DNA of 64,000 nt from IMG/VR virus record IMGVR_UViG_3300045974_000760, positions 62,001 to 126,000 of that record. One strand, given 5' to 3'. A program made the translations under genes and the position numbers. Below are positions 1,451 to 47,464 of the stretch, piece after piece. Source of the stretch: a virus. The notes beneath the pieces were generated by a model that searched no databases, was not told where the DNA came from, and saw only the letters and a program-made list of their open reading frames with translations. Each line of letters opens with the position of its first letter. Position 1 is the first letter of the stretch.

Positions 1451-1457
1451 GTCGCCC

Positions 1458-2351: not shown

Positions 2352-2353
2352 CC

Positions 2354-2926: not shown

Positions 2927-2942
2927 AGTCCTGCGCGGAAGT

Positions 2943-2951: not shown

Positions 2952-2985
2952 CGCATTGTACCCACTCACTGTTTAGGAGACAGAC

Positions 2986-3552: not shown

Positions 3553-3971
3553 AGGTCGTGCATATCGCGCCGGAGAAGCACCGTGACCTAGCATTTGGCG
3601 TGGTCGCGCACGCACTGTCATTCATCGTACCCCTCAACATCCGCGTCATCATCTTCGAGCTCGCTTCGGTGAGCTTGAAGGCGGAGGGCGCATCGGATGC
3701 TGAGGTGCAGCGTCTTGGCGAGGAGCTCGCGGACTTCCTCCTTCCTGAACGCGAGGATGGCAAGTACGAAGCCATCAAGGACAACCCGAGGGTTGCCCCG
3801 CTGCTGGCACAGCTACTCGAAGAGCGGTTCCCTGGTTTTCTCCCAACCCCGAAGGCAAGGAGCAAGAAGCGTGAGCCCAAACCCAAACTCAAGTCACCAA
3901 CCAAGGGTAGATTATTACCCAAACGTCAGGCACGTTGTGGAGGGCATCGACAAGCTGCCCGGAGAGACTGA
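3549..3971 (+). CDS. Hypothetical protein
   Basis: 140 residues, ATG overlapping the preceding stop (ATGA). Residues 1-100 are well-behaved (hydrophobic start VVHIAPEKHRDLAFGVVAHAL, then acidic ELADFLLPEREDG). The last 35-40 residues are a Lys/Arg/Pro tail that overlaps the next gene by about 100 bases, an unusually long overlap here. The true end may lie near 3880 if an indel is present. Function unknown. Confidence 0.5.
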   Translation: MKVVHIAPEKHRDLAFGVVAHALSFIVPLNIRVIIFELASVSLKAEGASDAEVQRLGEELADFLLPEREDGKYEAIKDNPRVAPLLAQLLEERFPGFLPTPKARSKKREPKPKLKSPTKGRLLPKRQARCGGHRQAARRD

Positions 3972-4116
3972 GCACGTGGTGATGTTCACTGCCGATGGCA
4001 GAATGATTGTGGTGTGGCGCGAGGGCAAGGAGAGGAAGAGCTGCTTCTCCGGTCTGGTTCTTCTGTCGCTGAAGCGTGAGGGGATTGCGCTTCAGCACAT
4101 TGGCCCGGAGGCGTAG
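3871..4116 (+). CDS. Hypothetical small protein
   Basis: 81 residues from GTG 3871, preceded by AAGGAGCAAGAAGC, a good Shine-Dalgarno at proper spacing. Content HVVEGIDKLPGETEHVVMF...GRMIVVWREGKERKSCFSGL looks like a compact beta domain. It lies in a different frame from the gene it overlaps, so either the two genes overlap by 100 bases or they were one gene separated by a frameshift near 3880. The stop TAG overlaps the GTG of the next gene. Confidence 0.55.
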   Translation: MSPNPNSSHQPRVDYYPNVRHVVEGIDKLPGETEHVVMFTADGRMIVVWREGKERKSCFSGLVLLSLKREGIALQHIGPEA

Positions 4117-4661
4117 TGCGCATCCCGCGAACTGGGCGGGTGCGTGTGTTTGCAGTACAGGCGGACCGCACCCTCAAGCATTGGAGCGATACACGATACG
4201 GGGCAGCGGGAGGGGCGCTGTTCGTACTGCAGACCATCTGTTACGAGAAGGGCATCACGGTACCTCCGCTGCGCACCGAGGCGCGGGTACCTGCCATGAC
4301 GAAGCTACTGCACAAGGGTGATGTTGGCGCACGTGCCGTTGATTCGCTTTCGCCGTATCAGCGGGGGCTGGTTCGGCTTGTACATCCGGACCACGGACAG
4401 CGCTATATCCGGCGCGAGGACATCCCGCTTGCCTGTGCCATGCTGTACAAGCGGTTCACGACCTACTACGGTCTGCTTGAGCCCGCGCCGCTGCTACCGT
4501 GGATTGTGTCGCAGCTGTGGGAGATCTACCACGCAGAGCAGTTCGGGGCGGCAATCCAGTGGGGGTACAAGACGCCCATCTGGGAGGAGCTCCTCGAAGC
4601 AAAGACGCCCGTAACGTTGGCAAGTGGCGTATCGGCGTGGAGGACGGAGGATAGGCGGTGA
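4116..4661 (+). CDS. Hypothetical protein
   Basis: 181 residues from GTG 4116, overlapping the previous TAG by one base. Basic N-terminus (MRIPRTGRVRVFAVQADRTLK), then a mixed alpha/beta body with GLVRLVHPDHGQRYIRREDI and several Trp/Tyr. No domain recognised. A 26-codon frame (GTG 4658 to TAG 4738) overlaps its stop and runs into the start of the next, very large gene. Confidence 0.6.
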   Translation: MRIPRTGRVRVFAVQADRTLKHWSDTRYGAAGGALFVLQTICYEKGITVPPLRTEARVPAMTKLLHKGDVGARAVDSLSPYQRGLVRLVHPDHGQRYIRREDIPLACAMLYKRFTTYYGLLEPAPLLPWIVSQLWEIYHAEQFGAAIQWGYKTPIWEELLEAKTPVTLASGVSAWRTEDRR

Positions 4662-4698: not shown

Positions 4699-7600
4699 AT
4701 GCTTTTTAGCCTCATGTCCTTCACCGCCGATGAAGTAGATGCCGCCGTTCAGAAGCTCGTCCAAGTCTCACTTCAGGTGAAGATGGATGCGACTGGCGCT
4801 CGACGTACGAGCGACACGTACGACGAGCTGATGTCCACAGCCGCGGGCCTCTTTCTCCTCTTCCCATTCGCCCCGCTCTACATCTTGTACCTCGCAGATG
4901 TGCGGCTGCGTACCCTCATCAAGACGCAGGTCGAGCAGGTCACCAAGCTACAGACCGCGCTCATCGCAGCAGCTCGCGCCGTCACACCCATCGAGGACAT
5001 CAGCGCGCTGAGTGAGGCGCGTGTTGCGCTCTCCGAGCTCGAAGGAGCTGCGGGCTCCCGCACCTCGACCTTCACCGACACTTCGACGCTGCCGGCGTAC
5101 CAACGGTTTCAGACACAAGCAGCTCGCTTTCTCGCGGGCCCGGCTCAGGTGGTGAAGTACGGCAACGACATCGTACAGACACCCCAAGAAGCACGCGCCT
5201 CCATCCCCGCGCTCGTGCTCGCCATCAAGACCACGCAGCTCGAGCTGCAGCGCAAGGCCACGCTACTCGCGGCCGGATACGCCGACTACGAGAGCTTGAA
5301 GCTCCCCTCCCGCCTCACGCGCTCCATGCTGCAGAAGGCGCGGACCACACTACAAGACCACGAGACTCGTCTCGCCTCACAGACACCACAAGAGCGGTTG
5401 TCGACGATGAGGAACGTGACGCTCGATGTGCTCGCCACCAAGGCAGCGGTAGCTACCACCGCTGCCTTCACCCCGTTGTCTGGCTTCCACAACATCGCAG
5501 GCACCGGCTCACCTCTCGGGGATGCAGCACACCCTGCAAATCCCGCCAGCCTCACAGCCAGTGTTGCGAGCCCCTACCCTATCGCCCAAGGCACGTCCTC
5601 CTCTCTCGAGGTGTGGGTAGATGGCGCGGTCTCTGCCAGCGAGACACTCGAGCTCAATCCCGCAACCACACCTGAGTTCATTGGCACAGTACCCGAGCCC
5701 TTCGAGATTGATGTCGCGAGCTCCCCCTTCACGTACAGCGTCACGCTCAGCGGTACGACGTACAGCTTCACGCATGACCTGACCGCGCTTGTGGGTTCAG
5801 GTTCGCGTCTCGCAGAGGAGGTGGCCAACGTCCTCAACCCGCTCATCGCGAGTTGCAACATCGCGTTCTCACCGGTGTTCAACGCGCTCAAGCTCGCAGG
5901 CATCACCACCCTCCTCACCGACGGGGGGATGGTAGGCGGGGATTGGACCCTCACCTTCGAATCCTTCGGCGCGAACTTCATCAATCAGGCGGTGGTGGTC
6001 GGGGACACCATCCTGCTCGAGGCCGCTGTAAGTGCAGGTCTTGGCGCGCTCGAGCACACAGCATGGACGGTGACATCGGTCTATCCGCTCGGTGTCAACC
6101 AGCACCGCATCATCGCCAAGCGCACACAGGCCTCCTTCGTCCTGCCCGCCTCCCCGCACAACATCAACTTCCGCATCGGCGACAAGAAGCAGCTGCAGCT
6201 CGGCCCGCTTGATGTACCGCTCGCCATCACGCAGGACATGGTCATCGCCATCGCGCCGGGCGCTACCAATACCGGCGCTACTACCGTGGGGATGCTGCCT
6301 GGCCTCACGCTCTCAGTAGGGCGCGTGGCTGCCAGTGACCTGATGGCCGACATCAACAGCAAGGCCAAGAAGTGCAAGGCCTCTGTCTCCTTCGTTCCCA
6401 CGCGCACCACGTCCTTCTATGGGTACTCGGACCCCAACGACCCAACCACGCTCGCGCTCTCTTACCTCAACCGCACCTTCCGAACCCTCACCGCAGGTGC
6501 GAGCACGTTCACGCTCAGTGTGCCTGATGCCGACCTTCTCGGGCTTGATGTTACGGTCGGCGATTACGTCACGCTGCGCTCGGGCGTGGACCTCGGTGAT
6601 AGCTTCCCTGTGAGTAGCGTGGATGCGCACACCATCACGTGCACTGGTACGCCAACGAGCGGGCTTGTGCAGTTCGACGTCAGCCCTGACCTCACCGCAC
6701 TCGCGGCCATCAACGACGTGGTCTCGGTGACAGAGGGGCCCAACACACTCCAATACGTTGTGCGGGCACAAGGACTGCGCCGCACCGAGCTCGTTCTGCA
6801 GACCGCACTGCCCAGCTTCAAGGACCCAAGTACGGGCAGCGCCATCGAGTTCCGTGGCGTGCTCGGCAAGACCCTCATCACCCTTGCCTCCCTCGATAAG
6901 ACCACCAAGTCCGCCATCCAGCTGCGCGGGCCCGCCTCCACACTCTTCAATCCCACCTACCCCATGAGTAGCTACGTGTTCGGGGCAACACCCTGGGTCA
7001 AGCTCCCCATCCTTCCTCGCGCCCTCGAGGCAGGTGATGTGCTCGAGCAGTACGGCTCCGACTACCAGCTCCCTGACAGTACGCACACCATCATCGATGT
7101 CGACCGGGCCAACAAGGGCATCAAGCTCGCGACCCCGGTGGATACGCAAGTCGCGCTCTCCTTCGTCGACCAAGAGCCGCCCTTCGCCAAGGTGCGTATC
7201 GCCAAGCATGCCGACTTCCAGACGCTCTCCACCGCGCTCACTGCGTGGCTCGCGCGGGAGGAGAACCAGAGCAACTACTTCGCCAACCTCAACGCGCTGC
7301 TCAACCCCATCCTGCTCAACGTCAACCCCACCTACGAGCAGACAGGCACAGCCGCGAACTCCGTGGCCATCCTCGCGGCGGGCCTCACGCCTGCCTTCGC
7401 TACCTCACTCGATGCTGACCCCGCGGTCTCCGTCGACTACGCGCTCGCAGCCTACACCGCCGACCCAATCCGTGAGGTGGACGCGCTGCTGCGAGCTCTA
7501 CGAGAGCGGGGAGCAGCACGCGCCTCAGACCTCCTCCTCGAGGGACAGTTCACCACGTTCTTCGGCATCCCCGCCGAGGAGGCTACGTACGCAGGCAAGA

Positions 7601-7824
7601 TGTCCTCTGACGTACGAGCGGTGACGCGTGAAGACCTCGTGGTTCGCCGCACTACCTCGAACGCCAAGGCATCTCAGCGCCTCATGGCTTCTGTGCCTGA
7701 CGAGGACCTCGGCTCCACCCTCGGCGATATCGATACAACGCCCGGCCCCGATGTCCCGGTCTCAGGTGCGAGCTCGGGCATGCCCGACTTCTTCGGCTCG
7801 GCAGACAACACGCCAGAGACCTGA
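4699..7824 (+). CDS. Large beta-structural tail/baseplate protein
   Basis: 1041 residues from ATG 4699. Upstream in-frame codons give an Arg-rich stretch that overlaps the preceding gene, so I prefer this ATG, although its Shine-Dalgarno is poor. N-terminal 55-80 contains a hydrophobic segment (AGLFLLFPFAPLYILYLADV), followed by helical sequence to about residue 270 and then a long beta-rich, Thr/Ser/Gly-rich body. The body repeats the module seen in other baseplate genes here: a VD..IT..VSG.TYSFTHDLTALV core, then EVANVLNPLIASCNI. The acidic C-terminus ends in SGMPDFFGSADNT. Likely a baseplate or fibre-hub protein. Assignment rests on composition and on similarity to the 54.9 kb gene. Confidence 0.6.
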   Translation: MLFSLMSFTADEVDAAVQKLVQVSLQVKMDATGARRTSDTYDELMSTAAGLFLLFPFAPLYILYLADVRLRTLIKTQVEQVTKLQTALIAAARAVTPIEDISALSEARVALSELEGAAGSRTSTFTDTSTLPAYQRFQTQAARFLAGPAQVVKYGNDIVQTPQEARASIPALVLAIKTTQLELQRKATLLAAGYADYESLKLPSRLTRSMLQKARTTLQDHETRLASQTPQERLSTMRNVTLDVLATKAAVATTAAFTPLSGFHNIAGTGSPLGDAAHPANPASLTASVASPYPIAQGTSSSLEVWVDGAVSASETLELNPATTPEFIGTVPEPFEIDVASSPFTYSVTLSGTTYSFTHDLTALVGSGSRLAEEVANVLNPLIASCNIAFSPVFNALKLAGITTLLTDGGMVGGDWTLTFESFGANFINQAVVVGDTILLEAAVSAGLGALEHTAWTVTSVYPLGVNQHRIIAKRTQASFVLPASPHNINFRIGDKKQLQLGPLDVPLAITQDMVIAIAPGATNTGATTVGMLPGLTLSVGRVAASDLMADINSKAKKCKASVSFVPTRTTSFYGYSDPNDPTTLALSYLNRTFRTLTAGASTFTLSVPDADLLGLDVTVGDYVTLRSGVDLGDSFPVSSVDAHTITCTGTPTSGLVQFDVSPDLTALAAINDVVSVTEGPNTLQYVVRAQGLRRTELVLQTALPSFKDPSTGSAIEFRGVLGKTLITLASLDKTTKSAIQLRGPASTLFNPTYPMSSYVFGATPWVKLPILPRALEAGDVLEQYGSDYQLPDSTHTIIDVDRANKGIKLATPVDTQVALSFVDQEPPFAKVRIAKHADFQTLSTALTAWLAREENQSNYFANLNALLNPILLNVNPTYEQTGTAANSVAILAAGLTPAFATSLDADPAVSVDYALAAYTADPIREVDALLRALRERGAARASDLLLEGQFTTFFGIPAEEATYAGKMSSDVRAVTREDLVVRRTTSNAKASQRLMASVPDEDLGSTLGDIDTTPGPDVPVSGASSGMPDFFGSADNTPET

Positions 7825-7842
7825 AAATATCACGCGGCTTGT

Positions 7843-7873
7843 GGGGATAAGTGATGTGACTCGCCCCTACGCT
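7843..7873 (+). promoter_or_regulatory. Bipartite GGGGATAAG / CTACGC promoter element
   Basis: GGGGATAAG at 7843-7851 followed after 15 bases by CTACGC at 7867-7872. Sits in the 115-base gap between the large structural gene and the start of the accessory gene block (ATG 7940, with AACAGGAGGG upstream). Same architecture as the copies near 16.9, 19.0, 22.9 and 25.5 kb. Confidence 0.6.
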
Positions 7874-7939
7874 GCGGTCTGCAATCTGTAGTTCTACTCG
7901 AGGAAAGTTGACACTCTTCAACAGGAGGGACACGAAGCA

Positions 7940-8284
7940 ATGAACCGTAGACCAAAGCCGTTTAGCACGGGCGAGCCGACAGCACTGGGTGCGTTTTTCC
8001 AGCGTGTTTTCGATGTTCTCGAGCAGCAGGGCGGGGCCAAGTCGGAGCAGCGCGGTGCGTTCGTGCAGTACATGGAAGCCACGCCGCCCTACGCGCGCTG
8101 CAGTATTCCCTTGAAGGGACTACTGGGAGTGAACGCGACGTTCCACCGGGGTGTGGTCGGCGGGCTCTACATCTCGTTGCCTGACGCACAAGAAACACCA
8201 GCGCGACGGGACAAGCAGCGCGAGATGGGCAAAGCGCTACGCCCGATGCACCAAGAGTGGCTTGAGCTCATCGGCAACGCCTGA
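7940..8284 (+). CDS. Hypothetical protein
   Basis: 114 residues, strong Shine-Dalgarno (CAACAGGAGGG). A Pro/Lys start is followed by ALGAFFQRVFDVLEQQGGAK and a small beta region (YARCSIPLKGLLGVNATF, then GGLYISLPDAQETP). No family recognised. First gene of a long accessory operon behind the promoter-like element at 7843. Confidence 0.6.
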   Translation: MNRRPKPFSTGEPTALGAFFQRVFDVLEQQGGAKSEQRGAFVQYMEATPPYARCSIPLKGLLGVNATFHRGVVGGLYISLPDAQETPARRDKQREMGKALRPMHQEWLELIGNA

Positions 8285-8439
8285 TGCGTATCTCGTTTCA
8301 CTCACTAGCTCATGCCCCCTGGCCGGTACTACACAGGCTGGCCCGCCATCTTCAACTTCAACGAATACCCGCCAGAGACACGCCGAAGAATAGGCTTCAG
8401 CTCGTCATGGCGATTTACCTCAGCATCACAGAGGAGTAG
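8284..8439 (+). CDS. Possible 51-residue small protein
   Basis: ATG at 8284 overlaps the previous stop (TGATG, the standard junction here), and the frame is open for 51 codons to TAG 8437-8439, nine bases before the next ATG. Product starts MRISFHSLAHAPWP and is rich in Arg, Leu and His. Supported by junction geometry and by filling an otherwise unexplained gap; composition gives only weak support. Confidence 0.35.
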   Translation: MRISFHSLAHAPWPVLHRLARHLQLQRIPARDTPKNRLQLVMAIYLSITEE

Positions 8440-8447
8440 GGGATTAC

Positions 8448-8846
8448 ATGCACACAACCAAAGTCGAGTTCATGCGAGACAGGCGAGAGCCCGGCGGGGG
8501 CTTCAACTGCCGTCTCGAACTCCACGGCTCAATGCTTCTGCTCTTCGTCGACGACAGCCTCGAGGCATTGGTCAACTTTCACGCGTTCACGCGAGTCGTG
8601 GCGTGGGACGCGTACCCTGATGACTCGGACGTCGATGGAGGCAACCACGTTGTGTACTTCGAGGGTGATGGCGTCGATACGTTCTACGTCGAGGCGCTGC
8701 CCGGGCATACGTCAGCAATCCTGGCGGCCTGCGCGCTGCACATCATCGGCACGACGTCGTCCGAGGCGTTTGACACCGAGCTCGTTACGCGCCTGGAGGC
8801 GCTTCGTGTTGCAGGCTCCGTGGAAGAAAAGGAACAAGCCAAATGA
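8448..8846 (+). CDS. Hypothetical protein, acidic
   Basis: 132 residues, ATG after AGGAGTAGGGGATTAC. Beta-rich N-terminal half (VEFMRDRREPGGGFNCRLEL, then MLLLFVDDSLEALVNFHAF) and acidic loops (DDSDVDGGNHVVYFEGDG). The C-terminus is helical and charged. No domain recognised. Four-base overlap with the next gene. Confidence 0.6.
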   Translation: MHTTKVEFMRDRREPGGGFNCRLELHGSMLLLFVDDSLEALVNFHAFTRVVAWDAYPDDSDVDGGNHVVYFEGDGVDTFYVEALPGHTSAILAACALHIIGTTSSEAFDTELVTRLEALRVAGSVEEKEQAK

Positions 8847-9466
8847 GTGATGACCCGAACTACAACGAGGCTGCGGTACTGCGCGAGAGCATTCAAGGCC
8901 GCTTCGAGGCATTGAAGGCAGCGGTGAAGGCGGGGCTTGTGCTCACTCTCACCAACAAGGAGGGGCACATGGCAACGGGCGGCGGGATGTTCGTCGAGAC
9001 CCTGCCCGACATCGTGTCGAGAGAGGGCATGGCCCTCATGGGGTACCGCTTCGTCGACACGGCGGATGGTGACACCATCATGGAGCCGTCGAATCGCGCT
9101 GCTCGTGGCGCGCTCAAGCTCCTTCAGACTGAGGTCCCTACGCCCGCTACATGCAGCGCGGCTGAGGAGATTCGTAAGAAGGGCAACATCGTAGGTGCGG
9201 GCGGCTGGGACATGCTGAGGGGCGCCGAGCTTCCCGTCACGGATGTCACCCCGGAGCCGGCGCCGGAGCTAGGTCAGCGTGATCACACGTTGCGCATGGA
9301 TGAAGACGACCTCCGCGAGCTCTTGCACGAGCTCAGGCATCTGCGCGCCCAACGCACCGAGCTGCAGAAGCACAACACGGCGTACCACGACCAAGTCGTG
9401 GAGCTGAAGAATCGCATCAGGGAGCTTGAGTCGCGTGTCGGCGTGGATACCGAGACGGGAGCGTAA
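8843..9466 (+). CDS. Hypothetical protein with C-terminal coiled coil
   Basis: 207 residues; ATG overlaps the preceding stop. Residues 1-130 form a mixed region with MATGGGMFVETLPDIVSREG and an acidic Pro-rich linker (VTPEPAPELGQ). Residues about 150-205 (DDLRELLHELRHLRAQRTEL, then LKNRIRELESRV) have a clear heptad pattern. Probably an oligomeric protein; function unknown. Confidence 0.6.
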   Translation: MSDDPNYNEAAVLRESIQGRFEALKAAVKAGLVLTLTNKEGHMATGGGMFVETLPDIVSREGMALMGYRFVDTADGDTIMEPSNRAARGALKLLQTEVPTPATCSAAEEIRKKGNIVGAGGWDMLRGAELPVTDVTPEPAPELGQRDHTLRMDEDDLRELLHELRHLRAQRTELQKHNTAYHDQVVELKNRIRELESRVGVDTETGA

Positions 9467-9944
9467 ACACGTCCCCTCGAAGGCCACTCTCCTTTTGCGG
9501 GAGTGGTACGAGCAGAAGTACAACGTGAAGGTGGACTGGGCGGCGCGCGAGCCTGTGTTCGGTATCGTTGCTGCCGCTGCGCGTCTTGGTGTGAGCATGC
9601 CCGCGTTGTACAACTGGCTGCACGGGGCGGTCCCCTACATCGACATGCGTATCCTGCTCGAGCAGGAGATGGGCATCCCCCTCACTGCATGGCCATCGAC
9701 GCGCGGGTTCGAGCGACGGGACTTGCTCAAGGATGTGTCGGGGACGCGCGTGGACCATGTTCTCGTGCTCTGCCGTAGTCCGAGACGGGCACAAGAGAAG
9801 CAGGCGTTCTTCGACGCGCTCTGCGACTGCGGTAACTTCTTCCGCGTAGGTAGTGCGGTGGTGCGGTACGAGCGGCGACTGCCCTTCGTGTGTACGCGCT
9901 GCCACAAGTACCGCACCAAGCAGTACGACAAGCTGTCCGCGTAG
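9426..9944 (+). CDS. Putative DNA-binding protein: HTH-like plus zinc ribbon-like
   Basis: 172 residues if started at TTG 9426 (GTG 9435 is an alternative; both lie inside the previous gene). Residues about 40-65 (GIVAAAARLGVSMPALYNWL) look like a helix-turn-helix in which the second helix begins at SMPALYNW. Near the C-terminus, a Cys pair (ALCDCGNFF) and a second pair (FVCTRCHKYR) suggest a small zinc knuckle. Likely a regulator; target unknown. Followed by a strong terminator. Confidence 0.55.
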   Translation: MSRVSAWIPRRERKHVPSKATLLLREWYEQKYNVKVDWAAREPVFGIVAAAARLGVSMPALYNWLHGAVPYIDMRILLEQEMGIPLTAWPSTRGFERRDLLKDVSGTRVDHVLVLCRSPRRAQEKQAFFDALCDCGNFFRVGSAVVRYERRLPFVCTRCHKYRTKQYDKLSA

Positions 9945-29020: not shown

Positions 29021-29091
29021 GGGAGGTTGGGGCGGTTCCCCTAGCGGGCCTTATAAGCCGTGATCCACGGGTTCAACTCCCGTACCTCCTA
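29021..29091 (+). tRNA. tRNA-Ile(TAT)-like gene
   Basis: 71 nt. The acceptor stem GGGAGGT pairs with ACCTCCT (one G-T). T arm ACGGG-TTCAACT-CCCGT is perfect, and the anticodon loop CTTATAA gives TAT. The D arm is short, and two outer pairs of the anticodon stem are mismatched, so the gene may be decaying. CCA is not encoded. The 118 bases upstream (28903-29020) hold no feature that I recognise. Confidence 0.5.
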
Positions 29092-29121
29092 CAACAACCA
29101 CAACACAGAAAGGAGCAGCCC

Positions 29122-29565
29122 ATGGCTGTTCGACGTATCCGTGTACCTGCGCGCGAGCTCTCACCCGAGCTGCTCGATGCGGTTCGCGCTATTGCAGCAA
29201 CCAATGATGTACCTGCAGAGGACGTTGAGGTTGACATCGTCAGTCCAGCGGATGCGCCACTACGCGACCGCGTACTAGCTCTGCTGGGAACGCCGCGTGA
29301 GGGCCCGGTGTTTGAGCAGCAGTACCAAGGCATGTTCATCGAGGCTGATAGAGTGCCTGAGCACCCTGAGCTAACGCCACAGCAACAGGCGATACTGAGG
29401 CGGCAGCGAGAAGCGATGTTCGGGAGGAGATACGGGCGTAGCGGCAGAGACTTCAGTGTTTCGTCCCCGCCGCTCACAGAGGAAGAAGGGCGCGCCCTGA
29501 GCAATACACTCGTGGACTCCTTGCGTACACCGCCAGTGCTGCGCAGACCGCATCTTCATGTCTGA
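29122..29565 (+). CDS. Hypothetical protein
   Basis: 147 residues, strong Shine-Dalgarno (AGAAAGGAGCAGCCC). AVRRIRVPARELSPELLDAV, then an acidic Pro-rich middle and EHPELTPQQQAILRRQREAM. Probably mostly helical. No family recognised. Confidence 0.6.
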   Translation: MAVRRIRVPARELSPELLDAVRAIAATNDVPAEDVEVDIVSPADAPLRDRVLALLGTPREGPVFEQQYQGMFIEADRVPEHPELTPQQQAILRRQREAMFGRRYGRSGRDFSVSSPPLTEEEGRALSNTLVDSLRTPPVLRRPHLHV

Positions 29566-30001
29566 GCAAGACTGGGCAGACATCCAGCAGTGGAGCGGTG
29601 AGTCGCCGGATATGGCAGATGCCGTGGCCATGGCCGTAGCAAACACCGTCAAGCCGCGGGTGAAGCGCCCGAAGTACCTCGGTGAACTCATGAAGAAGGG
29701 CGGGCTCGATATCGACGCCATCATCAATAGCCGGGTCGGTGACTACTACTCCCTGGACAAGCCCCGTGACCCAGGCTTCGCCAACTACCTCAAGGACACG
29801 TACAGGTGGAGTAAACACGAAGCTCGCCGCCAATGGCGCGCCCTACTCGATCGCGATATCGACCCCGCGGTAATACTCAACACAAGGAGGGCAACGTGGC
29901 GAAAGATGACGCAGAACAAGCAAACGAAGGTCGCGACCTCGGAGCAGAACCTAGTAGAACCGTTATCCAGACACACTCTGTGCAGCACGTCTTCGCTGTA
30001 G
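29558..30001 (+). CDS. LG[ER]L-DIDxII motif protein 3
   Basis: 147 residues, 8-base overlap with the previous gene. Motif YLGELMKKGGLDIDAIINSR at about 47-66, then a degenerate second copy LLDRDIDPAVILNTRR at about 97-112. The C-terminal 35 residues overlap the next gene in another frame and may not be genuine. Confidence 0.6.
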   Translation: MSEQDWADIQQWSGESPDMADAVAMAVANTVKPRVKRPKYLGELMKKGGLDIDAIINSRVGDYYSLDKPRDPGFANYLKDTYRWSKHEARRQWRALLDRDIDPAVILNTRRATWRKMTQNKQTKVATSEQNLVEPLSRHTLCSTSSL

Positions 30002-30642
30002 GGGAGGAGAGGGCAGTCGGCGCGATGGTGGATGGGCGCTATCACGAATACAACCACGGCGAGACCGTACCCGGACCGAATGTCATCGAGGTGGTCGCGC
30101 AGCTCGAGACTCCGCTGGAGTACATTCGTATGCAGCTGCAGATCCCCGATGAAGTAGTTGTCGAGGCTGCCGCCGCGGGGGCGTTGCGCACTCTCACTGA
30201 CGGGGTGGAGGCGATGTACCTGCTCGACCGGCGAATCATGCGGATGCCACTGCTTCCATTCGGCCCGCTTCATCAGTCGAGGGTGCCGCTGCCCATGCCT
30301 CCGCTCCCAACAAGCAGCGCGGTCTTCCCGCCCTACCGCAACAGCCTGCCCGTACCCCGCCCAGCATGTCTCGGGGAGTTGATGAAGAAGGACGGGAAGA
30401 ACATCGACGCGATAGTAGAAGCGCGGGCGCCCGTACGGTACCCGCGGCACAGGAACCTCAATCAGCTCAACCCAGTGCATCGTGGTGTCCGCGAACAGTT
30501 CAAGGAGTACCTCATTACGAGAGGCATTACCGCCAAGAACTCCAGGCAAGCCTGGGCTACGTCGTCGGAGGAAGGGCAGAGCCCAAGGTTCGTGCTGGAG
30601 TACAGCTTCCAGTACTTCATGCATCGACTGAGGGCGACGTAG
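29896..30642 (+). CDS. LG[ER]L-DIDxII motif protein 4
   Basis: 248 residues from GTG 29896 (CACAAGGAGGGCAAC). Contains TPLEYIRMQLQIPDEVVVEA (about 73-92), like the gene at 13801. A Pro-rich linker follows, then CLGELMKKDGKNIDAIVEAR (about 156-175), the family motif. The C-terminus is basic and aromatic. Function unknown; last protein before the tRNA cluster. Confidence 0.6.
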   Translation: MAKDDAEQANEGRDLGAEPSRTVIQTHSVQHVFAVGEERAVGAMVDGRYHEYNHGETVPGPNVIEVVAQLETPLEYIRMQLQIPDEVVVEAAAAGALRTLTDGVEAMYLLDRRIMRMPLLPFGPLHQSRVPLPMPPLPTSSAVFPPYRNSLPVPRPACLGELMKKDGKNIDAIVEARAPVRYPRHRNLNQLNPVHRGVREQFKEYLITRGITAKNSRQAWATSSEEGQSPRFVLEYSFQYFMHRLRAT

Positions 30643-30736
30643 GACCGCAGGAGCGTTGTACTTCCCGCGGTTTTCTTAGCTACAACACCGCCAATACAAA
30701 AGGTACTTGCGCTTCTGAAAACGCGCTGTATTACTT

Positions 30737-30773
30737 CCCTCGTCCCGAAGTACAACCTAACCGGTGACGAGGG
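30737..30773 (+). other. Hairpin of unknown function
   Basis: CCCTCGTC (30737-30744) pairs perfectly with GACGAGGG (30766-30773), with a 21-base loop. No T-run follows directly. It could be a processing signal before the tRNA genes. Confidence 0.4.
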
Positions 30774-30820
30774 ACCCCCTCTTAGCAGTCAGTAACGCTC
30801 TGTGAAAATGTAAGCCGGTC

Positions 30821-30903
30821 GGAGTTCGATAGGACATGGCTGTCCAGGCGGTCTGTAACACCGCGGCCCTACGGGGCGAGTGGTTCGATTCCACCGGGCT
30901 TCA
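30821..30903 (+). tRNA. tRNA-Tyr(GTA)
   Basis: 83 nt class II tRNA. The acceptor GGAGTTC pairs with GGGCTTC, with three G-T pairs. D stem GGAC/GTCC with loop ATGGCT; perfect anticodon stem GCGGT/ACCGC with loop CTGTAAC; long variable arm GGCCCTACGGGGC; T loop TTCGATT. The acceptor-D linker is four bases instead of two. A terminator-like hairpin follows at once. Confidence 0.65.
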
Positions 30904-30905
30904 CT

Positions 30906-30953
30906 GGAAGAGCTGGCCGCCCCTCGGGGAGGAGGGGCTCTTCCTACTTTTTG
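30906..30953 (+). terminator. Terminator after tRNA-Tyr
   Basis: GGAAGAGC (30906-30913) and GCTCTTCC (30937-30944) form the outer stem, and CCCCTC/GAGGGG-type pairing the inner stem. TACTTTTTG follows. Confidence 0.75.
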
Positions 30954-31027
30954 TTCGGGTCGTTGGTTGTGGGTTACCCCATCGAAAAAGTCCCCCACGT
31001 CCATTCATTTATCCGAACTTGTAGTAC

Positions 31028-31113
31028 GCCTCGTGTAGCTCAGTTGGTAGAGCGCGGGATGACATCCGAAAGGGGTCTGCCCGAGGTCGATGGTTCAAGC
31101 CCATCCACAGGCA
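31028..31113 (+). tRNA. Irregular tRNA-like gene, anticodon uncertain
   Basis: 86 nt. Canonical D arm (GCTCAGTTGGTAGAGC) and T arm (GATGG-TTCAAGC-CCATC). The acceptor pairs at only four positions (GCCT/AGGC). Between the D and T arms lies a longer than normal anticodon region: CGGG and CCCG enclose 21 bases that can form a GAAA-capped hairpin (CC-GAAA-GG). Candidate anticodons are GAC or none. Either a decayed tRNA or one carrying a short insertion. Confidence 0.45.
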
Positions 31114-31207
31114 CACGGGCTGAATAAGCTCGGGCGCAAGCCCCTCTACTCTTGGTGACACAAGAGATAGACTGAGTTCCGGCTCAGAGGTAAACCGGAG
31201 AAGTACG

Positions 31208-31282
31208 GGTAGGGAAGAGAAATGGTTCTCACTGGCCGCGTAGTTCGTCCACGCCCCGTCGGTTCGATTCCGACCTCTACCC
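31208..31282 (+). tRNA. tRNA-like gene, possibly Arg(TCG)
   Basis: 75 nt. Acceptor GGTAGGG/CTCTACC is fully paired with one G-T, the T arm GTCGG-TTCGATT-CCGAC is perfect, and the D arm is GAGA/TCTC. The best anticodon stem is GCGT/ACGC with loop GTTCGTC (TCG), but it leaves six extra bases after the D arm and a three-base variable loop. Real tRNA ancestry is clear; the anticodon is tentative. Confidence 0.5.
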
Positions 31283-31418
31283 CCGCCGGTCCCCGATGAC
31301 GAGTCGACTTACTCTACGTAAGATGTTGGCCGTCTCTGTTCGCCTCTCGTAAACGCTAGCCTCTTCACGAGCGACAGATAGAGAATAATCGGGAGTACTG
31401 GCAGCTACTTGTTGTATT

Positions 31419-31491
31419 GAGGCGTTAGCTCAGGTGGAAGAGCGGTGAGCTGTTAACTCACTTGTCGTTGGTTCAACTCCAACACGCTTCG
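31419..31491 (+). tRNA. tRNA-Asn(GTT)
   Basis: 73 nt, canonical cloverleaf: acceptor GAGGCGT/ACGCTTC, D arm GCTC/GAGC, anticodon stem GTGAG/CTCAC with loop CTGTTAA, T arm GTTGG-TTCAACT-CCAAC. No encoded CCA. Confidence 0.9.
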
Positions 31492-31615
31492 CATGCTGGT
31501 TGTACCGAGACAAGCTTAAGCCCGTGACGCTTAGGCGCTTGCACTCCCCGATGATGTTCTAGACTACTTCAAAGGGGCGGGTGAGCTAGACGTATAGCCG
31601 GCAAGTTCTTTTTTT

Positions 31616-31687
31616 ACCAGCATAGCTCAGCGGTAGAGCTTCGCCTTTACACGGCGGATGTCGGGGGTTCGAATCCCTCTGCCGGTA
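31616..31687 (+). tRNA. tRNA-Val(TAC)
   Basis: 72 nt. Acceptor ACCAGCA/TGCCGGT (one A-C mismatch), D arm GCTC/GAGC, anticodon stem TCGCC/GGCGG with loop TTTACAC, T loop TTCGAAT. No encoded CCA. Confidence 0.85.
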
Positions 31688-31691
31688 CAAT

Positions 31692-31766
31692 GCGCGAGCG
31701 GCGAAACTGGCAAACGCACATGCCTTAGGAGCATGAACTCTAGGGGTTCGAGCCCCCTCTTGCGCA
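31692..31766 (+). tRNA. tRNA-Leu(TAG) with a short variable loop
   Basis: 75 nt. Acceptor GCGCGAG/CTTGCGC, Leu-type D arm (GGCGAAACTGGCAAACGC), perfect anticodon stem CATGC/GCATG with loop CTTAGGA, T arm AGGGG-TTCGAGC-CCCCT. The variable loop is only about six bases, whereas bacterial Leu tRNAs are class II with a long arm. Confidence 0.8.
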
Positions 31767-31779
31767 TAGTTGTTTTCAC

Positions 31780-31852
31780 GCTGACGTAGCTCAGTCGGTA
31801 GAGCTCCTGTTTTGTAATCAGGGGGTCGGGGGTTCAAATCCCTTCGTCAGCT
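31780..31852 (+). tRNA. tRNA-Thr(TGT)
   Basis: 73 nt. Perfect acceptor GCTGACG/CGTCAGC, D arm GCTC/GAGC, anticodon stem CCTG/CAGG with a T-T closing mismatch and loop TTTGTAA, T arm GGGGG-TTCAAAT-CCCTT. No encoded CCA. Confidence 0.85.
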
Positions 31853-31933
31853 CTTCGCCGCGATAACCCAGCTAGAGGAACCACTAGCGTCTCAGTCTCG
31901 GTTGTTTTCGGCGGCCAACCGTAGAGGAAGAAC

Positions 31934-41356: not shown

Positions 41357-41688
41357 CCGAATACGAGCAAGCCCTGGAACGGGGGCGGATCCTGGATAGA
41401 AGGATCGAAGCGCAGGAGCGGCATGTCAAGGCGTTCGCCGTGCTGGTCGGCATGTACGCTGCACTGGTGCTCGGCTACAGCGCGGTGGTTCTACACTACG
41501 TCCTCATTTTACGCCGCCTTCTACAAGCGGTGCCGGTCAAGTACCCTGAGAGGCATGACCCTCTCAGATCTCCTCCACGACATCAAGGTCGAGTTCCCGG
41601 GCTTTCGTCTCATGCCCAAAAGCGACTCGACCTTCATGAGCGTGCTCCACGTGCTCCTGACCATCATCACGCTCGGCGGGGCGCGTAA
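41353..41688 (+). CDS. Small membrane protein, end uncertain
   Basis: ATG 41353 (ATGA overlap). A charged helix (TEYEQALERGRILDRRIEAQ) then one membrane helix (AFAVLVGMYAALVLGYSAVV); residues about 25-52 resemble a holin-like or Rz-like topology. After about residue 68 the frame is an Arg/His/Pro-rich stretch that overlaps the metalloprotease-like gene, so the natural end is probably near 41555. Function unknown; proximity to the lysis genes at 51-53 kb is not close. Confidence 0.45.
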   Translation: MTEYEQALERGRILDRRIEAQERHVKAFAVLVGMYAALVLGYSAVVLHYVLILRRLLQAVPVKYPERHDPLRSPPRHQGRVPGLSSHAQKRLDLHERAPRAPDHHHARRGA

Positions 41689-42097
41689 GAGCTTCATGGA
41701 GGATTACGTCACCACCATCGGCAACACCATCTACATCCCCAACGGCTGGGGTTTGATCTCCGCGGAAGAGAAGGTTGTCCTTCTCCGTCACGAGCGCGTG
41801 CACCTTCGTCAGGCGCGCAAGTACGGAGCCTTCCTGTTCGCCTTTCTCTACCTCTGCTTCCCTCTGCCGCTCGTCTTCGCCTACTACCGCGCGAAGTTCG
41901 AGAAGGAGGCGTACGAGGAGAGCATGCGGGCTGATGCAGAGCAGTACGGCCTCACCGTCCTCAACGACAGCTACAAGGCCTTCATCCTCCGTCAGTTCAC
42001 GGGCCCGATGTACGGTTGGATGTGGCCCTTCAAGGCGGGCATTGAAACGTGGTACAACGACACCGTGAAACGCGTGAGCAAGGAGCTGTCCCGATGA
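41555..42097 (+). CDS. HExxH metalloprotease-like membrane protein
   Basis: 180 residues. A hydrophobic stretch (MSVLHVLLTIITLGGA, about 28-43), then LLRHERVHLRQARKYG with H79-E80-x-x-H83, the zinc-metalloprotease motif. A second hydrophobic region (GAFLFAFLYLCFPLPLVFAY) and KEAYEESMRAD, whose Glu could be the third ligand, follow. Resembles M48/M56-type or phage-encoded membrane peptidases. Substrate unknown; no signal peptide. Confidence 0.65.
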   Translation: MTLSDLLHDIKVEFPGFRLMPKSDSTFMSVLHVLLTIITLGGARKSFMEDYVTTIGNTIYIPNGWGLISAEEKVVLLRHERVHLRQARKYGAFLFAFLYLCFPLPLVFAYYRAKFEKEAYEESMRADAEQYGLTVLNDSYKAFILRQFTGPMYGWMWPFKAGIETWYNDTVKRVSKELSR

Positions 42098-42597
42098 CCC
42101 CCGAGATGCAGGCAGTGATGAGCGGTTTTTTCGATGAGATGAGCAAGCTCGCAGAGGGCGAAGAGAGCTTTCTTGACCGGCACGGTCACCACGTAGGTAC
42201 CGCGGCCCAAGGTGCCATAGCAGGTGGCTTCTTCGGGCACGAACTCGGAGGTACGCGTGGCGCGGCTTTGGGTGCGACGCTCGGAGGGTTGTACGGCGGC
42301 GGGGCCACCGAGCTCATGACCCGCGCACATCGAAATGCCATCCTCAGCGCCAACGACGACGAGCTGTTGAAGTCGCGTGAGAAGCTGCAGAACTTGCCCC
42401 GTAACAACGCCATACTCGGAACACTCGGGGGCGCAGGCCTCGGGTACGGGTACGGTAAGGGCTCTCCCGTGGCTGCGGGCATTGGCGCCACAATCGGCGG
42501 GTTGACCGGGTACGCGGTGGGGCGCGGCACACGCGCTCAGAACACGAAGAACATCGATAACCTGTTGGCATCGCGGGCAGAAGAAGGAGAGCACTGA
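42094..42597 (+). CDS. Glycine-zipper membrane protein
   Basis: 167 residues from ATG 42094. Helical N-terminus, then GAIAGGFFGHELGGTRGAAL, GATLGGLYGG and GTLGGAGLGYGYGKGSPVAA: two glycine-zipper regions (GxxxG) able to pack in a membrane. Preceding and following genes have the same kind of segment. May take part in membrane penetration during DNA ejection, but this is inference. Confidence 0.65.
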   Translation: MTPEMQAVMSGFFDEMSKLAEGEESFLDRHGHHVGTAAQGAIAGGFFGHELGGTRGAALGATLGGLYGGGATELMTRAHRNAILSANDDELLKSREKLQNLPRNNAILGTLGGAGLGYGYGKGSPVAAGIGATIGGLTGYAVGRGTRAQNTKNIDNLLASRAEEGEH

Positions 42598-45452
42598 TGC
42601 ATCCGCTGCTGCAAGGCTTCATCGCAGAGGTTCGCGAAGAACTGCAAAAGGAAGCTGACGATGATGGCTCAGCTGGGCCGCGTAGGGGTGACGGCCCCGG
42701 TGCGCGGTGGAAGGCTGAGCGCGCGGCTGACCCCGCGGTGGCAGCGCGAACAGAGCACATCGTGTCCAAGTATAGCCGCCGTCCTGAGGAGCCTAGCGAG
42801 AACCGCTACATCCACAAGCGCCCAGGGGCCACGCACCTGGGACCGACGTACCAAGGGCGACAGCGGCACGGCATGGCTAGCTTCGAGGTACCAGGCGAGT
42901 ACCACGACATGTCGCCGAACGAAGTCGAAGCGCTGAAGCGCCACCCGTTCCGTGACGCTGAGTACGAGCTCGCGAAGAAGCGACAAGATCTCGGAATCCC
43001 CGTGAGGCAGAGGCTCAGTCAAATCGAGCCGCGACAGACCGAGGCAGCGCCAGGCGAGCATCATCTGCCGGACACGCTCAAGGTGATGGAGCAGCACCCG
43101 CAAGGCGCGAACCTAGCCGCCATGGAAGAGCGGGAAGTCGCGAACGCCGTACGCGCTCGTGCTGTAGGTGAGCAGATACAGAAAAGCCAGGAGGCAATGC
43201 AAGAAAAGGCGATGCAGTTCGGCGAACGCGCTGCTGCGCGCGTCGGCTCGGCGGAGGATGCGGCGAAGGCGCTGCGCGCACCTGCGATGGCAGCACCTTT
43301 CGCGCTGGCCGGCTTGGCTGCCGGGCACCACCTTCTGTCGGAGAAGTACAAGGGCAGTACCGGCGAGAAAGTATTCAACCAGGGTCTCACCCCCGCATTG
43401 GCAGGCACGGCAATGGGCATTTCGGCCGGCGGGGTTCTCGGCGCTCTGAAAGGAAAGCCACTGGGGCGTTCCGCTCTGCTTGGTGCGGGCCTCGGGGCAG
43501 TTGGGGGCGTCGGCTTGGATCAGGCAATGCGCGCGATGAATACAGGCGCAATGCTCGACAAGTCGCCGCGGCAGATTCGAGAGCATATCGAGAAGCAGCG
43601 GCTCGTTCCTGCTATGAACGCTGGCACAAACGCACTGTCTGGAGGGGTAGTGGCGGGTACATCCGCGCTGGCACTACACTCAATGGGTGTTGCGCCGAAG
43701 TGGACAGTACCTGCAGCGGCCGTGGGCGGCGCTGCACTTGCCGGTAGTCTCGGGTATCACTACGGGCGCACAGCACTCGACCAGCTCAAGGAACGTGCAC
43801 AGTTGTTTGGCGTGGACCCGGAGATGAAGACAGCGAGCCTCTTCGTTGACAACGGGGCGCTGCGTCGCGGTGTGTTTCCGGCAATCGGTGAGGAGGCTGC
43901 TCGCGTAATGCAGTCGAAGGCCCCCACGTCTTCGTTGCCTGACAAGTTTCGGCGTTTCGGTAACTATTTGGAGCAGAACGTACACCTGCCTGAAGAGATC
44001 GCAGACGCAGCTCCGGAGAAGCTGACGCGCGTTCAGCGCGCCAAGCAGGTACTGCTCGGTTATCGCCCAGCAGCACTGCGTGAGCAGTACGAATCCGTGG
44101 CACCGGGACCGGAGAAGGAGAAGCTGCTCAAGGCGTTGACGCGCGAGGACTCCAACACCGGAATGGCCCGCGCTGGACTAGGTTCTGTGGCGGCTCCATT
44201 GGCGGCCGGTAGTATGTACGCCGGATATCGCGGGGCGAAGAAGTTCATTCCCTCTGTTGACATGAAGTACACCGGAGAGAAGGGCAACGCGAGTGAGGAG
44301 GAGATTGCGCGGCGTAAGGAGCTTGTGGGGGCATCAGGCACTCTCACGGCCGATGTCGCGGACCGGCTCAACACCGACAAGGGCTCGACCAGCAAGGTCA
44401 CGCTTCAGGATGCTACCGATGTCGCGAAGGGCACTGGCGGCGCAGCCGCGCTGACGCGCTACACAGGCAACTCTTCTCTCTCTCGTTTGTTGGGCGTAGA
44501 GACCGGCTATCACGGCACCACGCCAGAGGCAGCGCAGAAGATCTTGGCTACGGGGCTGGACCCAGCCTTCGGTGCGCGAGAGGGCGGGGCTACACGGCGG
44601 CTTGTGGCGCAGAGCAATGTCGCCGCGGCGCTGCGCGGGGAGAAGCCTATGACGAGGGAGGACATTCACCGCCTCAATCCGGCACAGGCTGCGCACGTAC
44701 TTGATGCGCATTTGGGCTACGGCGGCGAGCATCTGGCGGACGAGATTGAGCCGAAGATGCCGCTGATGACGCAGAGCCATGTACCCATCAACACGGAGCA
44801 GTTTGTGGATAACGCTCGCAATCGAACCTACATCGCGCGCGGCGAGCCAGGCATGTACGCTGCGGCGCAGTACGCATCGATGCAGGACCCTCTGGTAGCA
44901 CGGCGCATGAAAGCGGAGGGAGGCGCGCATTTGGCGGACGCAGCGGAGCGGCGTGATATCGGGGGGATGGGTAAGGGCTTGTCCGAAGTGGCGTCCGCTC
45001 CGATGCGTGCAAGGGCCGAGATGATGAGTGATGTGCCTGGCAAAGGACGCGTTGTAGCCATGGCGATGCCGATGGAGAAGTTCGAAAAGAACTTCGAGTT
45101 CGACGGAGACGACGCGACCCGTTTTCAGCATGGCTTTCGAACGGTGCGAGATGAGCAAGGCAAGGGCGTCCCTCTTATCGGTAAGGAGCACCTCAACCTC
45201 GGGGAGGTTACGACGGGCAACATCGTGCGTAACCGCTCCAAGGACATGATGGGTTACATCAAGAAGCACCCGGGTCGCTTCGCTGCGGGTGTCGCAGGTA
45301 CGGGCCTCAACGTAGCGGCACACGGGTACAACCTTGCGCACAACATCATCCCAACCGTGGGCAAGATGATTCCAGACGCGGTCAAGGACAAGGTTCGGTC
45401 CATGATGCCCACCATCGCTTCCCCCGAGACCGCCTCGGCCCCTGAGCAGTGA
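42597..45452 (+). CDS. 951-residue glycine-zipper protein with ADP-ribosyltransferase-like domain
   Basis: 951 residues. Charged N-terminal 200 residues, then glycine-zipper blocks (about 225-300, 345-395, 520-545). At about 637-660: GYHGTTPEAAQKILATGLDP then AFGAREGGATRRL, the [YH]-HGT...GL.P signature of the ADP-ribosyltransferase fold; a possible second motif RTYIARGEPGMYAAAQYASM lies at about 743-762. The third (Glu) motif cannot be placed with confidence. Phages package such enzymes and inject them with DNA (T4 Alt), which would suit the zippers. It could also be an inactive fold. Confidence 0.6.
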   Translation: MHPLLQGFIAEVREELQKEADDDGSAGPRRGDGPGARWKAERAADPAVAARTEHIVSKYSRRPEEPSENRYIHKRPGATHLGPTYQGRQRHGMASFEVPGEYHDMSPNEVEALKRHPFRDAEYELAKKRQDLGIPVRQRLSQIEPRQTEAAPGEHHLPDTLKVMEQHPQGANLAAMEEREVANAVRARAVGEQIQKSQEAMQEKAMQFGERAAARVGSAEDAAKALRAPAMAAPFALAGLAAGHHLLSEKYKGSTGEKVFNQGLTPALAGTAMGISAGGVLGALKGKPLGRSALLGAGLGAVGGVGLDQAMRAMNTGAMLDKSPRQIREHIEKQRLVPAMNAGTNALSGGVVAGTSALALHSMGVAPKWTVPAAAVGGAALAGSLGYHYGRTALDQLKERAQLFGVDPEMKTASLFVDNGALRRGVFPAIGEEAARVMQSKAPTSSLPDKFRRFGNYLEQNVHLPEEIADAAPEKLTRVQRAKQVLLGYRPAALREQYESVAPGPEKEKLLKALTREDSNTGMARAGLGSVAAPLAAGSMYAGYRGAKKFIPSVDMKYTGEKGNASEEEIARRKELVGASGTLTADVADRLNTDKGSTSKVTLQDATDVAKGTGGAAALTRYTGNSSLSRLLGVETGYHGTTPEAAQKILATGLDPAFGAREGGATRRLVAQSNVAAALRGEKPMTREDIHRLNPAQAAHVLDAHLGYGGEHLADEIEPKMPLMTQSHVPINTEQFVDNARNRTYIARGEPGMYAAAQYASMQDPLVARRMKAEGGAHLADAAERRDIGGMGKGLSEVASAPMRARAEMMSDVPGKGRVVAMAMPMEKFEKNFEFDGDDATRFQHGFRTVRDEQGKGVPLIGKEHLNLGEVTTGNIVRNRSKDMMGYIKKHPGRFAAGVAGTGLNVAAHGYNLAHNIIPTVGKMIPDAVKDKVRSMMPTIASPETASAPEQ

Positions 45453-45459
45453 GCCCCGC

Positions 45460-46122
45460 ATGACTCGACCTGAAGAGCAGCTGACCACACGTCGCGAGGT
45501 TATCCGAGACATCGACCGTCACGAGGACACCTGGCGCGGTGTGGTTTCGCAGGTTCAGGGCGAGAAGAAGCGGACGGCCAAGGACATAGCGAACAAGAGT
45601 AAGTGGGGGCCGCGCCTTGTGGTGCCCGGCGCAGTCGCAGGGCTAACGGCGGGTGTTGTGGCTCCTAGTCTTCTGTCCACGGAGTTGATGCGGCGCGGGT
45701 ACAAGGGACTGGGTACCGCGGCAGCGATTATGACGCCCGCCACTGCTTTTGGCGGCGCGCTCTACGGTGGTATTGGCGGCTACCGCCTCGGCGACAAGAT
45801 TGATGACACACCTCAGCGCGACGCGCTGCGGGAGCATTTGAGCAATCTCTCCTCCTACGGGCGACATCGACAAGAAGACCCGCGACCAGCTCGTGCGGGA
45901 TTACAACGAGGACAAGCTCAAGGCACTGCTCGTCTCTTCGGCGGGCGGGGAAGGCCTCGACCTCAAGGGCACCCGCCTCGTGCAGATGCTCGACCCACAC
46001 TGGAACAACGAGAAGCTCCGTCAGGTGGAAGGCCGGGCCATTCGCTACAAGAGCCACGACCACCTGCCCGAGGAGGAGCGCAACGTCACCATCAACAACT
46101 ACCTGGCGACGCGCCCTCGTAA
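45460..46122 (+). CDS. Glycine-zipper protein fused to out-of-frame sequence
   Basis: Residues 1-130 are genuine: RPEEQLTTRREVIRDIDRHE, then PGAVAGLTAGVVAPSLLSTE and FGGALYGGIGGYRLGDKIDD. From about residue 133 (after NLSS) the frame becomes Arg/Pro/Gln-rich because the underlying DNA codes for a helicase fragment in another frame from 45860. The gene is therefore truncated, or joined by a deletion, at about 45855. Membrane-active role suspected, like its neighbours. Confidence 0.5.
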   Translation: MTRPEEQLTTRREVIRDIDRHEDTWRGVVSQVQGEKKRTAKDIANKSKWGPRLVVPGAVAGLTAGVVAPSLLSTELMRRGYKGLGTAAAIMTPATAFGGALYGGIGGYRLGDKIDDTPQRDALREHLSNLSSYGRHRQEDPRPARAGLQRGQAQGTARLFGGRGRPRPQGHPPRADARPTLEQREAPSGGRPGHSLQEPRPPARGGAQRHHQQLPGDAPS

Positions 46123-46255
46123 GGGCATCCTCGAGAGCTTGCACATCTCCGACCCGGGCCTTGGTGCGGACCAGTACCTGACGCGACGGTCTGGCGAGAA
46201 GGACAAGCTGATCGACCAGTTCAAGGGGCTGCTCCCGAACTCGAAGAAGAGCTAG
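45860..46255 (+). pseudogene. C-terminal fragment of a superfamily-2 helicase
   Basis: From 45860 (TGDIDKKTRDQLVRDYNEDK) the frame reads VSSAGGEGLDLKGTRLVQML then QVEGRAIRYKSHDHLPEEER, the helicase motifs V and VI with their D and R residues (GRAxRYxSH as in D6/D11-type and phage SNF2-like helicases). Only about 130 residues of a protein usually three or more times longer are present. No start codon and no motifs I-IV nearby; a GTG at 45893 could give a short product. Best explained by a deletion joining the zipper gene to the end of a helicase gene. Confidence 0.65.
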
Positions 46256-47386: not shown

Positions 47387-47393
47387 AGCTATG

Positions 47394-47464
47394 CGGTTCT
47401 GGCTGGAGTCGAACCAGCTTCCGGGAAGTTAGAAATCCTTGTTCGGCCGTTGAACTACAGAACC
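47394..47464 (-). tRNA. tRNA-like gene, anticodon CTA (possible amber suppressor)
   Basis: 71 nt on the minus strand. Acceptor GGTTCTG/CAGAACC is perfect, D arm GTTC/GAAC has loop AACGGCC, T arm GCTGG-TTCGACT-CCAGC is perfect. Counting from both sides places loop TTCTAAC, so anticodon CTA; the alternative TCT (Arg) needs a worse stem. The anticodon stem has only three Watson-Crick pairs (GGA/TCC) with mismatches at both ends. No encoded CCA. Confidence 0.55.

What the first reader, a model, noticed from the sequence alone, without database searches (positions are those of the whole stretch)
42094..45855. Glycine-zipper gene cluster with an ADP-ribosyltransferase-like domain
Three adjacent genes encode GxxxG-rich membrane-active segments, and the middle one (951 residues) carries YHGTT...GLDP, an ART-type signature, at about residue 638. 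Packaging of ARTs with DNA is known for T4 Alt. Joining an ART with several zipper blocks in one giant protein suggests an ejected protein that crosses the envelope and modifies host targets. The HExxH protein immediately upstream could process it.
Basis: partly seen in the sequence, partly recalled or inferred. Interest (0 to 1): 0.7.

Follow-up and report, generated by a model that had tools for sequence, protein, structure and literature searches.

The report
Tagged phage cargo with ADP-ribosyltransferase-like protein
A large uncultivated phage carries a membrane-crossing protein with a probable NAD-using enzyme domain, next to a small membrane protein bearing a short N-terminal tag that this phage and its relatives attach to dozens of otherwise unrelated proteins, probably to load them into the virus particle for injection into the host.

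Summary
The genes and motifs are there: g146 (167 aa, zipper), g147 (951 aa, zippers; YHGTT...GL at residue 638) and a zipper gene cut off at ~45857 by a fusion to the last 133 residues of an SNF2-type helicase. Structure prediction failed, so the ART fold and catalytic Glu remain untested. By sequence, residues 626-666 of g147 match an uncharacterised ART-like, zipper-flanked family; one member lies in a head-gene cluster, another, Salmonella phage Arash gp96c, is annotated 'structural protein' and flanked by zipper 'structural proteins'. A virion-borne ART-like zipper protein is fairly well supported; the enzymatic claim is about even odds. It is H-type, unlike T4 Alt (R-S-E). The HExxH neighbour is not consistently linked to ART genes. 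Unexpectedly, g146 (and g147 degenerately) begins with a tag, [ASG]-F-x-D-E-L-x-K-I/L-A, that recurs at the N-terminus of unrelated proteins in this clade: 36 N-terminal versus 2 interior hits in 3,664 proteins (permuted motif mean 0.23); held-out p = 2e-10; 53 unrelated body clusters in an IMG/VR scan. Bodies include SNF2 helicase, InPase, GNAT, C92 amidase and zippers, overlapping the 'polyvalent protein' repertoire. Likely a capsid-cargo targeting signal, analogous to T4 and P1 signals; untested experimentally.

The parts
41555..42097 (+). g145: HExxH (HERVH) membrane-type metallopeptidase-like protein, 180 aa
   Evidence: Weak M56/BlaR1 match, E 0.0021, below cut-off; H79, E80, H83 conserved in the G001 homologue; homologues in other contexts
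42094..42597 (+). g146: 167-aa glycine-zipper protein with N-terminal cargo tag
   Evidence: Gly-zipper Pfam matches below cut-off; strict tag match; ribosome site before ATG
42127..42153 (+). Tag FFDEMSKLA of g146 (residues 12-20)
42597..45452 (+). g147: 951-aa zipper and ART-like protein
   Evidence: no whole-length homologue found
42615..42656 (+). Degenerate tag-like N-terminus GFIAEVREELQKEA of g147 (residues 7-20)
   Evidence: Resembles the tag, but neither the strict nor the loose expression matches it; assignment is inference
43392..43517 (+). Hydrophobic glycine-zipper block, g147 residues 266-307
43632..43754 (+). Second glycine-zipper block, g147 residues 346-386
44472..45236 (+). 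ART-like domain, g147 residues 626-880 (boundaries approximate)
   Evidence: Profile match of its first 41-57 residues to the G044/G045/Arash family (hmmsearch E 5.6e-4 in 2,115 proteins; hhalign E 3e-5, probability 73%)
44508..44558 (+). ART motif 1, YHGTTPEAAQKILATGL (638-654)
44826..44879 (+). Candidate ART motif 2, TYIARGEPGMYAAAQYAS (744-761)
   Evidence: Aligned with KIHVSKNPFVAGQFA of G044
45186..45188 (+). Candidate catalytic Glu, E864 in IGKEHLNLGE
   Evidence: Position only; inference
45460..45857 (+). Truncated zipper gene (third gene of the finding)
   Evidence: Hydrophobic zipper at residues 50-77; frame ends at the junction
45857..46255 (+). Remnant of an SNF2-type helicase (C-terminal 133 residues)
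   Evidence: 66% to intact orthologues L133/L134, homology starts at residue 364 of 496; no N-terminal part elsewhere in G000; Helicase_C 1.6e-9

Best explanation
g146 and g147 are late-made virion cargo of a large tailed phage. A short N-terminal tag, probably an amphipathic helix (clear in g146, degenerate in g147), recruits such proteins into the capsid during assembly. On infection they leave with the DNA; the glycine-zipper helices insert into or permeabilise the inner membrane so that the ART-like domain of g147 reaches the cytoplasm and transfers ADP-ribose from NAD to a host target. Shown: genes, zippers, ART-type motif 1, homology to zipper-flanked ART-like proteins in other phages, and the N-terminal tag on many unrelated proteins. 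Inferred: packaging, ejection, membrane crossing and enzyme activity.
For: Homology of g147 626-666 to G044/G045 and Arash gp96c. gp96c and zipper neighbours gp95c/gp97c are annotated 'structural protein' although they lie amid tRNAs and small genes far from the head module. The G045 member sits among head genes and shares the start MNKYLEKIA with that genome's helicase (MNKYLVKIA) and small zipper proteins. Tag statistics: 20/1820 N-terminal vs 1/7978 interior; held-out 15/1473 vs 1/6169, p 2e-10; 36 vs 2, permuted motifs mean 0.23, maximum 2; DNA-pattern scan 66/84 ORFs within 25 aa of the start vs 19.3 expected, 53 body clusters, position -1 A/S/G in 61/66 although unconstrained. Tagged bodies: SNF2 helicase, InPase, GNAT, C92 amidase, MazG, NlpC/P60, zippers. 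Precedents: T4 internal proteins share only a capsid targeting sequence (PMC3012670); 30 N-terminal residues of P1 DarB target a reporter to the capsid (PMC9024508); a glycine zipper is needed for T6SS effector Tde1 entry (PMC10240207); ARTs are often head-packaged (PMC9503650).
Against: g147's own tag is degenerate. No structure, catalytic residues or activity shown; the homology covers only 41-57 residues. The basis of 'structural protein' in the Arash record is not stated, and no paper on Arash was found. Arash shows no significant N-terminal motif bias, and no isolate with the tag was found (a weak test), so no proteomics supports the tag.
Confidence: 0.55

Rival explanations
1. g147 is virion cargo whose ART-like domain is degenerate or is another fold; its job is mechanical, forming part of a membrane-spanning ejection conduit with the zipper proteins.
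For: Zippers are the main recognisable feature of g146, g147, gene 3 and Arash gp95c/gp97c; motif 3 is uncertain and the models failed.
Against: The HGT motif and the I..GL that follows are kept across phages that share little else.
Confidence: 0.27
2. The N-terminal tag is not a capsid signal but a signal for something else, such as an inner-membrane, phage-nucleus or tail-assembly address, or a maturation-protease site.
For: The major capsid proteins of the clade also carry an EKIA-like stretch (GKEKIAEYGG), which would fit a common protease or assembly interaction.
Against: Bodies resemble injected effectors, and ART/zipper relatives are annotated structural in Arash.
Confidence: 0.22
3. 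The cluster is non-functional: a decaying region, as the helicase remnant and truncated gene 3 suggest, with a chance YHGTT motif.
For: Frame junction at 45857; no whole-length g147 homologue in the 34 related or comparison records searched.
Against: g147 keeps a 951-codon open frame with strong coding signal and a ribosome site; homologous ART-like proteins exist.
Confidence: 0.08

Closest known systems
Salmonella phage Arash gp95c-gp97c (OQ632216)
   Same: Zipper - ART-like with zipper - zipper gene trio; all annotated 'structural protein'; ART motif 1 and its flanks are homologous
   Different: gp96c is 225 aa instead of 951; no FxDELxKIA tag; different position in the genome
T4 internal proteins / P1 DarB capsid targeting sequences
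   Same: Short N-terminal sequence shared by, or sufficient for packaging of, otherwise unrelated capsid cargo (PMC3012670, PMC9024508)
   Different: Different sequence; here it spreads over many more proteins and phages; packaging not yet shown
Polyvalent proteins (Iyer et al. 2017, PMC5512222)
   Same: Overlapping domain repertoire: ART, SWI2/SNF2, InPase, GNAT; predicted virion delivery
   Different: There 2-15 domains are fused in one chain; here mostly separate tagged proteins
T4 Alt
   Same: ART packaged in the head and injected
   Different: R-S-E active site; g147 has an H-type motif and zipper blocks
T6SS effector Tde1 (PMC10240207)
   Same: Glycine zipper plus enzyme domain; the zipper is needed for entry
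   Different: DNase delivered by a secretion system, not by a phage

Membership tests
ART superfamily | His (or Arg) in strand-1 motif | tested here: inconclusive
   YHGTT...I...GL present and conserved in the family, but the fold context is unknown
ART superfamily | Strand-2 motif (Y/S/H) | tested here: inconclusive
   TYIARG...AAQYA aligns with IHVSK...AGQFA in MAFFT only
ART superfamily | Catalytic Glu/Asp/Gln in motif 3 | tested here: inconclusive
   E864 is a candidate by position only
ART superfamily | ART fold | tested here: inconclusive
   AlphaFold2 pLDDT 36.6 twice
ART superfamily | NAD-dependent ADP-ribosylation | not testable with these tools
   needs an assay
Pfam ART-PolyVal PF18760 | Match to the family model | tested here: not met
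   g147's domain has no match to it at E<=10; none in 36 related or comparison records, although the model rings in one of 14 control genomes
T4 Alt / VIP2 (R-S-E) ARTs | Arg-Ser-Glu active site | tested here: not met
   The motif is H-G-T; no Pfam ART match; class definition from PMC5512222. No direct alignment with Alt was made
Polyvalent proteins | Two or more enzymatic domains in one chain | tested here: not met
   g147 shows one candidate enzymatic domain
Capsid targeting sequence (T4/P1 type) | Short N-terminal sequence shared by unrelated cargo | tested here: met
   For the clade and g146; g147 only degenerately
Capsid targeting sequence (T4/P1 type) | Sufficient to package a reporter | not testable with these tools
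   needs a fusion experiment
Glycine zipper | Pfam gathering threshold | tested here: not met
   g146 22.5 bits against 28.9 (PF13441) and 21.5 against 25 (PF13488); repeated GxxxG present

The most novel reading that the evidence does not exclude
[ASG]-F-x-D-E-L-x-K-[ILM]-A is a general cargo-sorting code of a large, mostly uncultivated phage lineage: a plug-in N-terminal address that places dozens of unrelated effectors, including helicases, an InPase, an acetyltransferase, amidases, membrane-active zippers and probably the ART-like protein, into the capsid for injection.
Probability: 0.5. Interest if true: 0.8.

Novelty: new variant of a known kind. Interest (0 to 1): 0.6.

Why it matters
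If the tag is a packaging address, the injected effector set of a whole phage lineage can be read directly from genome sequence, which is now guesswork, and the tag could carry chosen proteins into capsids as the T4 and P1 signals do. It would also show polyvalent-type effectors delivered as separate tagged parts rather than fused chains, and would make 'which phage proteins enter the host first' a testable question.

Tried and rejected
Whole-length and domain searches for g147 in IMG/VR, INPHARED phages, PDB, Pfam, PHROGs, NCBIfam and PADLOC gave no relative by direct search; the family surfaced only through a weak hit in a helicase-bearing phage. The Klebsiella phage Miami-type match to Arash gp96c was rejected: no HGT motif, and adding it weakened the profile. 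The first, crude K-x-A test over all G000 genes showed no excess (37/185 N-terminal vs 19% of interior windows), and the same test in Arash was not significant; only the fuller motif holds. AlphaFold2 models were too poor to use; a fold search was started on one and deliberately not collected. A scan of genome contigs for the ART-like family found none. G022's WHGTS match lies in a zipper-type protein and was judged not ART. The idea that the HExxH protein processes g147 has no conserved pairing.

Full report
WHAT IS THERE. The window is bases 62001-126000 of a 143,216-base IMG/VR virus record, G000. G000 belongs to a large group of mostly uncultivated tailed phages: its major capsid protein finds 61 contigs at 41-69% identity, the longest 209 kb, and, among isolates, only Salmonella phage Arash (29%) and three Vibrio phages (25%). 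Gene order is well kept between G000 and seven relatives, but the genes of the finding are not. g146 and g147 follow the HExxH gene g145 with overlapping stop and start codons and have ribosome sites before their ATGs.

GENE 3 IS BROKEN. The third gene (from 45460) runs as a plausible zipper protein only to ~45857. From there the DNA encodes, in another frame, the last 133 of 496 residues of a helicase whose intact orthologues occur in L133 and L134 (66-67%); the rest of the helicase is nowhere in G000. This looks like a deletion fusion; an assembly error cannot be excluded without reads.

THE ART CLAIM. YHGTTPEAAQKILATGL stands at residue 638 of g147. No family library recognises the domain. 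A search of 45 related records with the domain gave one weak hit, in G044: a 225-aa protein reading ...GYHTVYHGTSKTNAEAIRKEGF..., with zipper-like segments on both sides and the start MNKYLEKIA. Its relative in Arash is gp96c, E 2e-5, annotated 'structural protein', with zipper 'structural proteins' gp95c and gp97c on either side. A profile of these proteins ranks g147 first after the seed family among 2,115 clade proteins (E 5.6e-4, next best 0.27), and hhalign gives E 3e-5, probability 73%, over 41 columns. A second motif can be aligned, and E864 in IGKEHL is a candidate third-motif residue, by position only. T4 Alt is R-S-E, whereas polyvalent-protein ARTs are H-Y-D (PMC5512222); g147 would fall on the H side.

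THE TAG. Several proteins of the clade begin with F-x-D-E-L-x-K-I-A or close variants: g146 GFFDEMSKLA, g171 GFFEELEKLA (followed by an InPase domain, E 2.6e-26), g068 GFTDELSKMA, and the intact helicases AFCDEFTKIA and AFVDELVKIS. In the genomes used to frame it the strict motif lies at the N-terminus of 20 of 1,820 proteins and in 1 of 7,978 interior windows. In six genomes not used to frame it: 15 of 1,473 versus 1 of 6,169, p = 2e-10; two of the N-terminal matches in the whole set are one homologous family from the baseplate region that probably matches by chance. Over all 3,664 proteins: 36 versus 2, against a mean of 0.23 and a maximum of 2 for 150 permuted motifs; the 36 bodies form 22 homology clusters. 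G026 has five tagged proteins and G030 four, with unrelated bodies. Pfam finds SNF2 helicase, C92 amidase, GNAT, glyoxalase, MazG, NlpC/P60 and zippers among the scan's bodies. No paper in the held library contains the motif strings tried, which is weak evidence of novelty. g147 itself starts GFIAEVREELQKEA, which resembles the tag but matches neither expression; its membership in the tagged set is inference.

MECHANISM. T4 internal proteins share only a capsid targeting sequence (PMC3012670), and 30 N-terminal residues of P1 DarB are enough to load a reporter into the capsid (PMC9024508). The same idea explains an N-terminal tag on unrelated bodies with effector-like content. A glycine zipper is needed for the T6SS effector Tde1 to cross the target membrane (PMC10240207), which gives the zipper blocks a plausible role. 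The chain is therefore: tag-directed packaging (inferred), ejection (inferred), zipper-assisted membrane passage (inferred), ADP-ribosylation of a host target (inferred, the weakest step).

VERDICT. The finding is partly right. The cluster is best read as virion cargo with an ART-like component; the enzyme claim stands at about even odds. The more interesting outcome is the tag, which reaches well beyond this window and can be tested directly.

Noticed in passing
window 45857-46255: Orphan C-terminal piece of an SNF2-type helicase, fused out of frame to a zipper gene; intact tagged orthologues in L133 and L134, and a shorter tagged N-terminal form in G012.
   Followed up: yes
G000 1211-4306 and 7141-9930 (L002; outside the window): The large terminase and a neighbouring 929-aa protein that may be the portal carry long insertions relative to relatives (g007 residues ~185-567) with weak hits to helicase and ribonucleotide-reductase families: possibly inteins.
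   Followed up: partly
window 47393-47464 (-): ARAGORN calls a tRNA with CTA anticodon (tRNA-Pyl), away from the tRNA cluster at 29021-31853; a suppressor tRNA or an artefact.
   Followed up: no
G000 132361-133563 (L006:8361-9563; outside the window): Tagged protein with an InPase domain (PF18823) and a C-terminal HNH_3 match.
   Followed up: partly
MCP loci among L009-L069: Capsid proteins of the clade share an N-terminal GKEKIAEYGG stretch reminiscent of the end of the tag; it may hint at a common assembly partner or protease.
   Followed up: partly
G045 36374-77187 (L207-L209): A related but distinct tag, MNKYLEKIA, starts the ART-like protein, the helicase (MNKYLVKIA) and small zipper proteins of this genome.
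   Followed up: partly
L231, L289, L290: The tag also occurs at residues ~60-90 behind a small domain reading MPKWIHDRA...IATQQSHSLGK, so it is not always strictly N-terminal.
   Followed up: no
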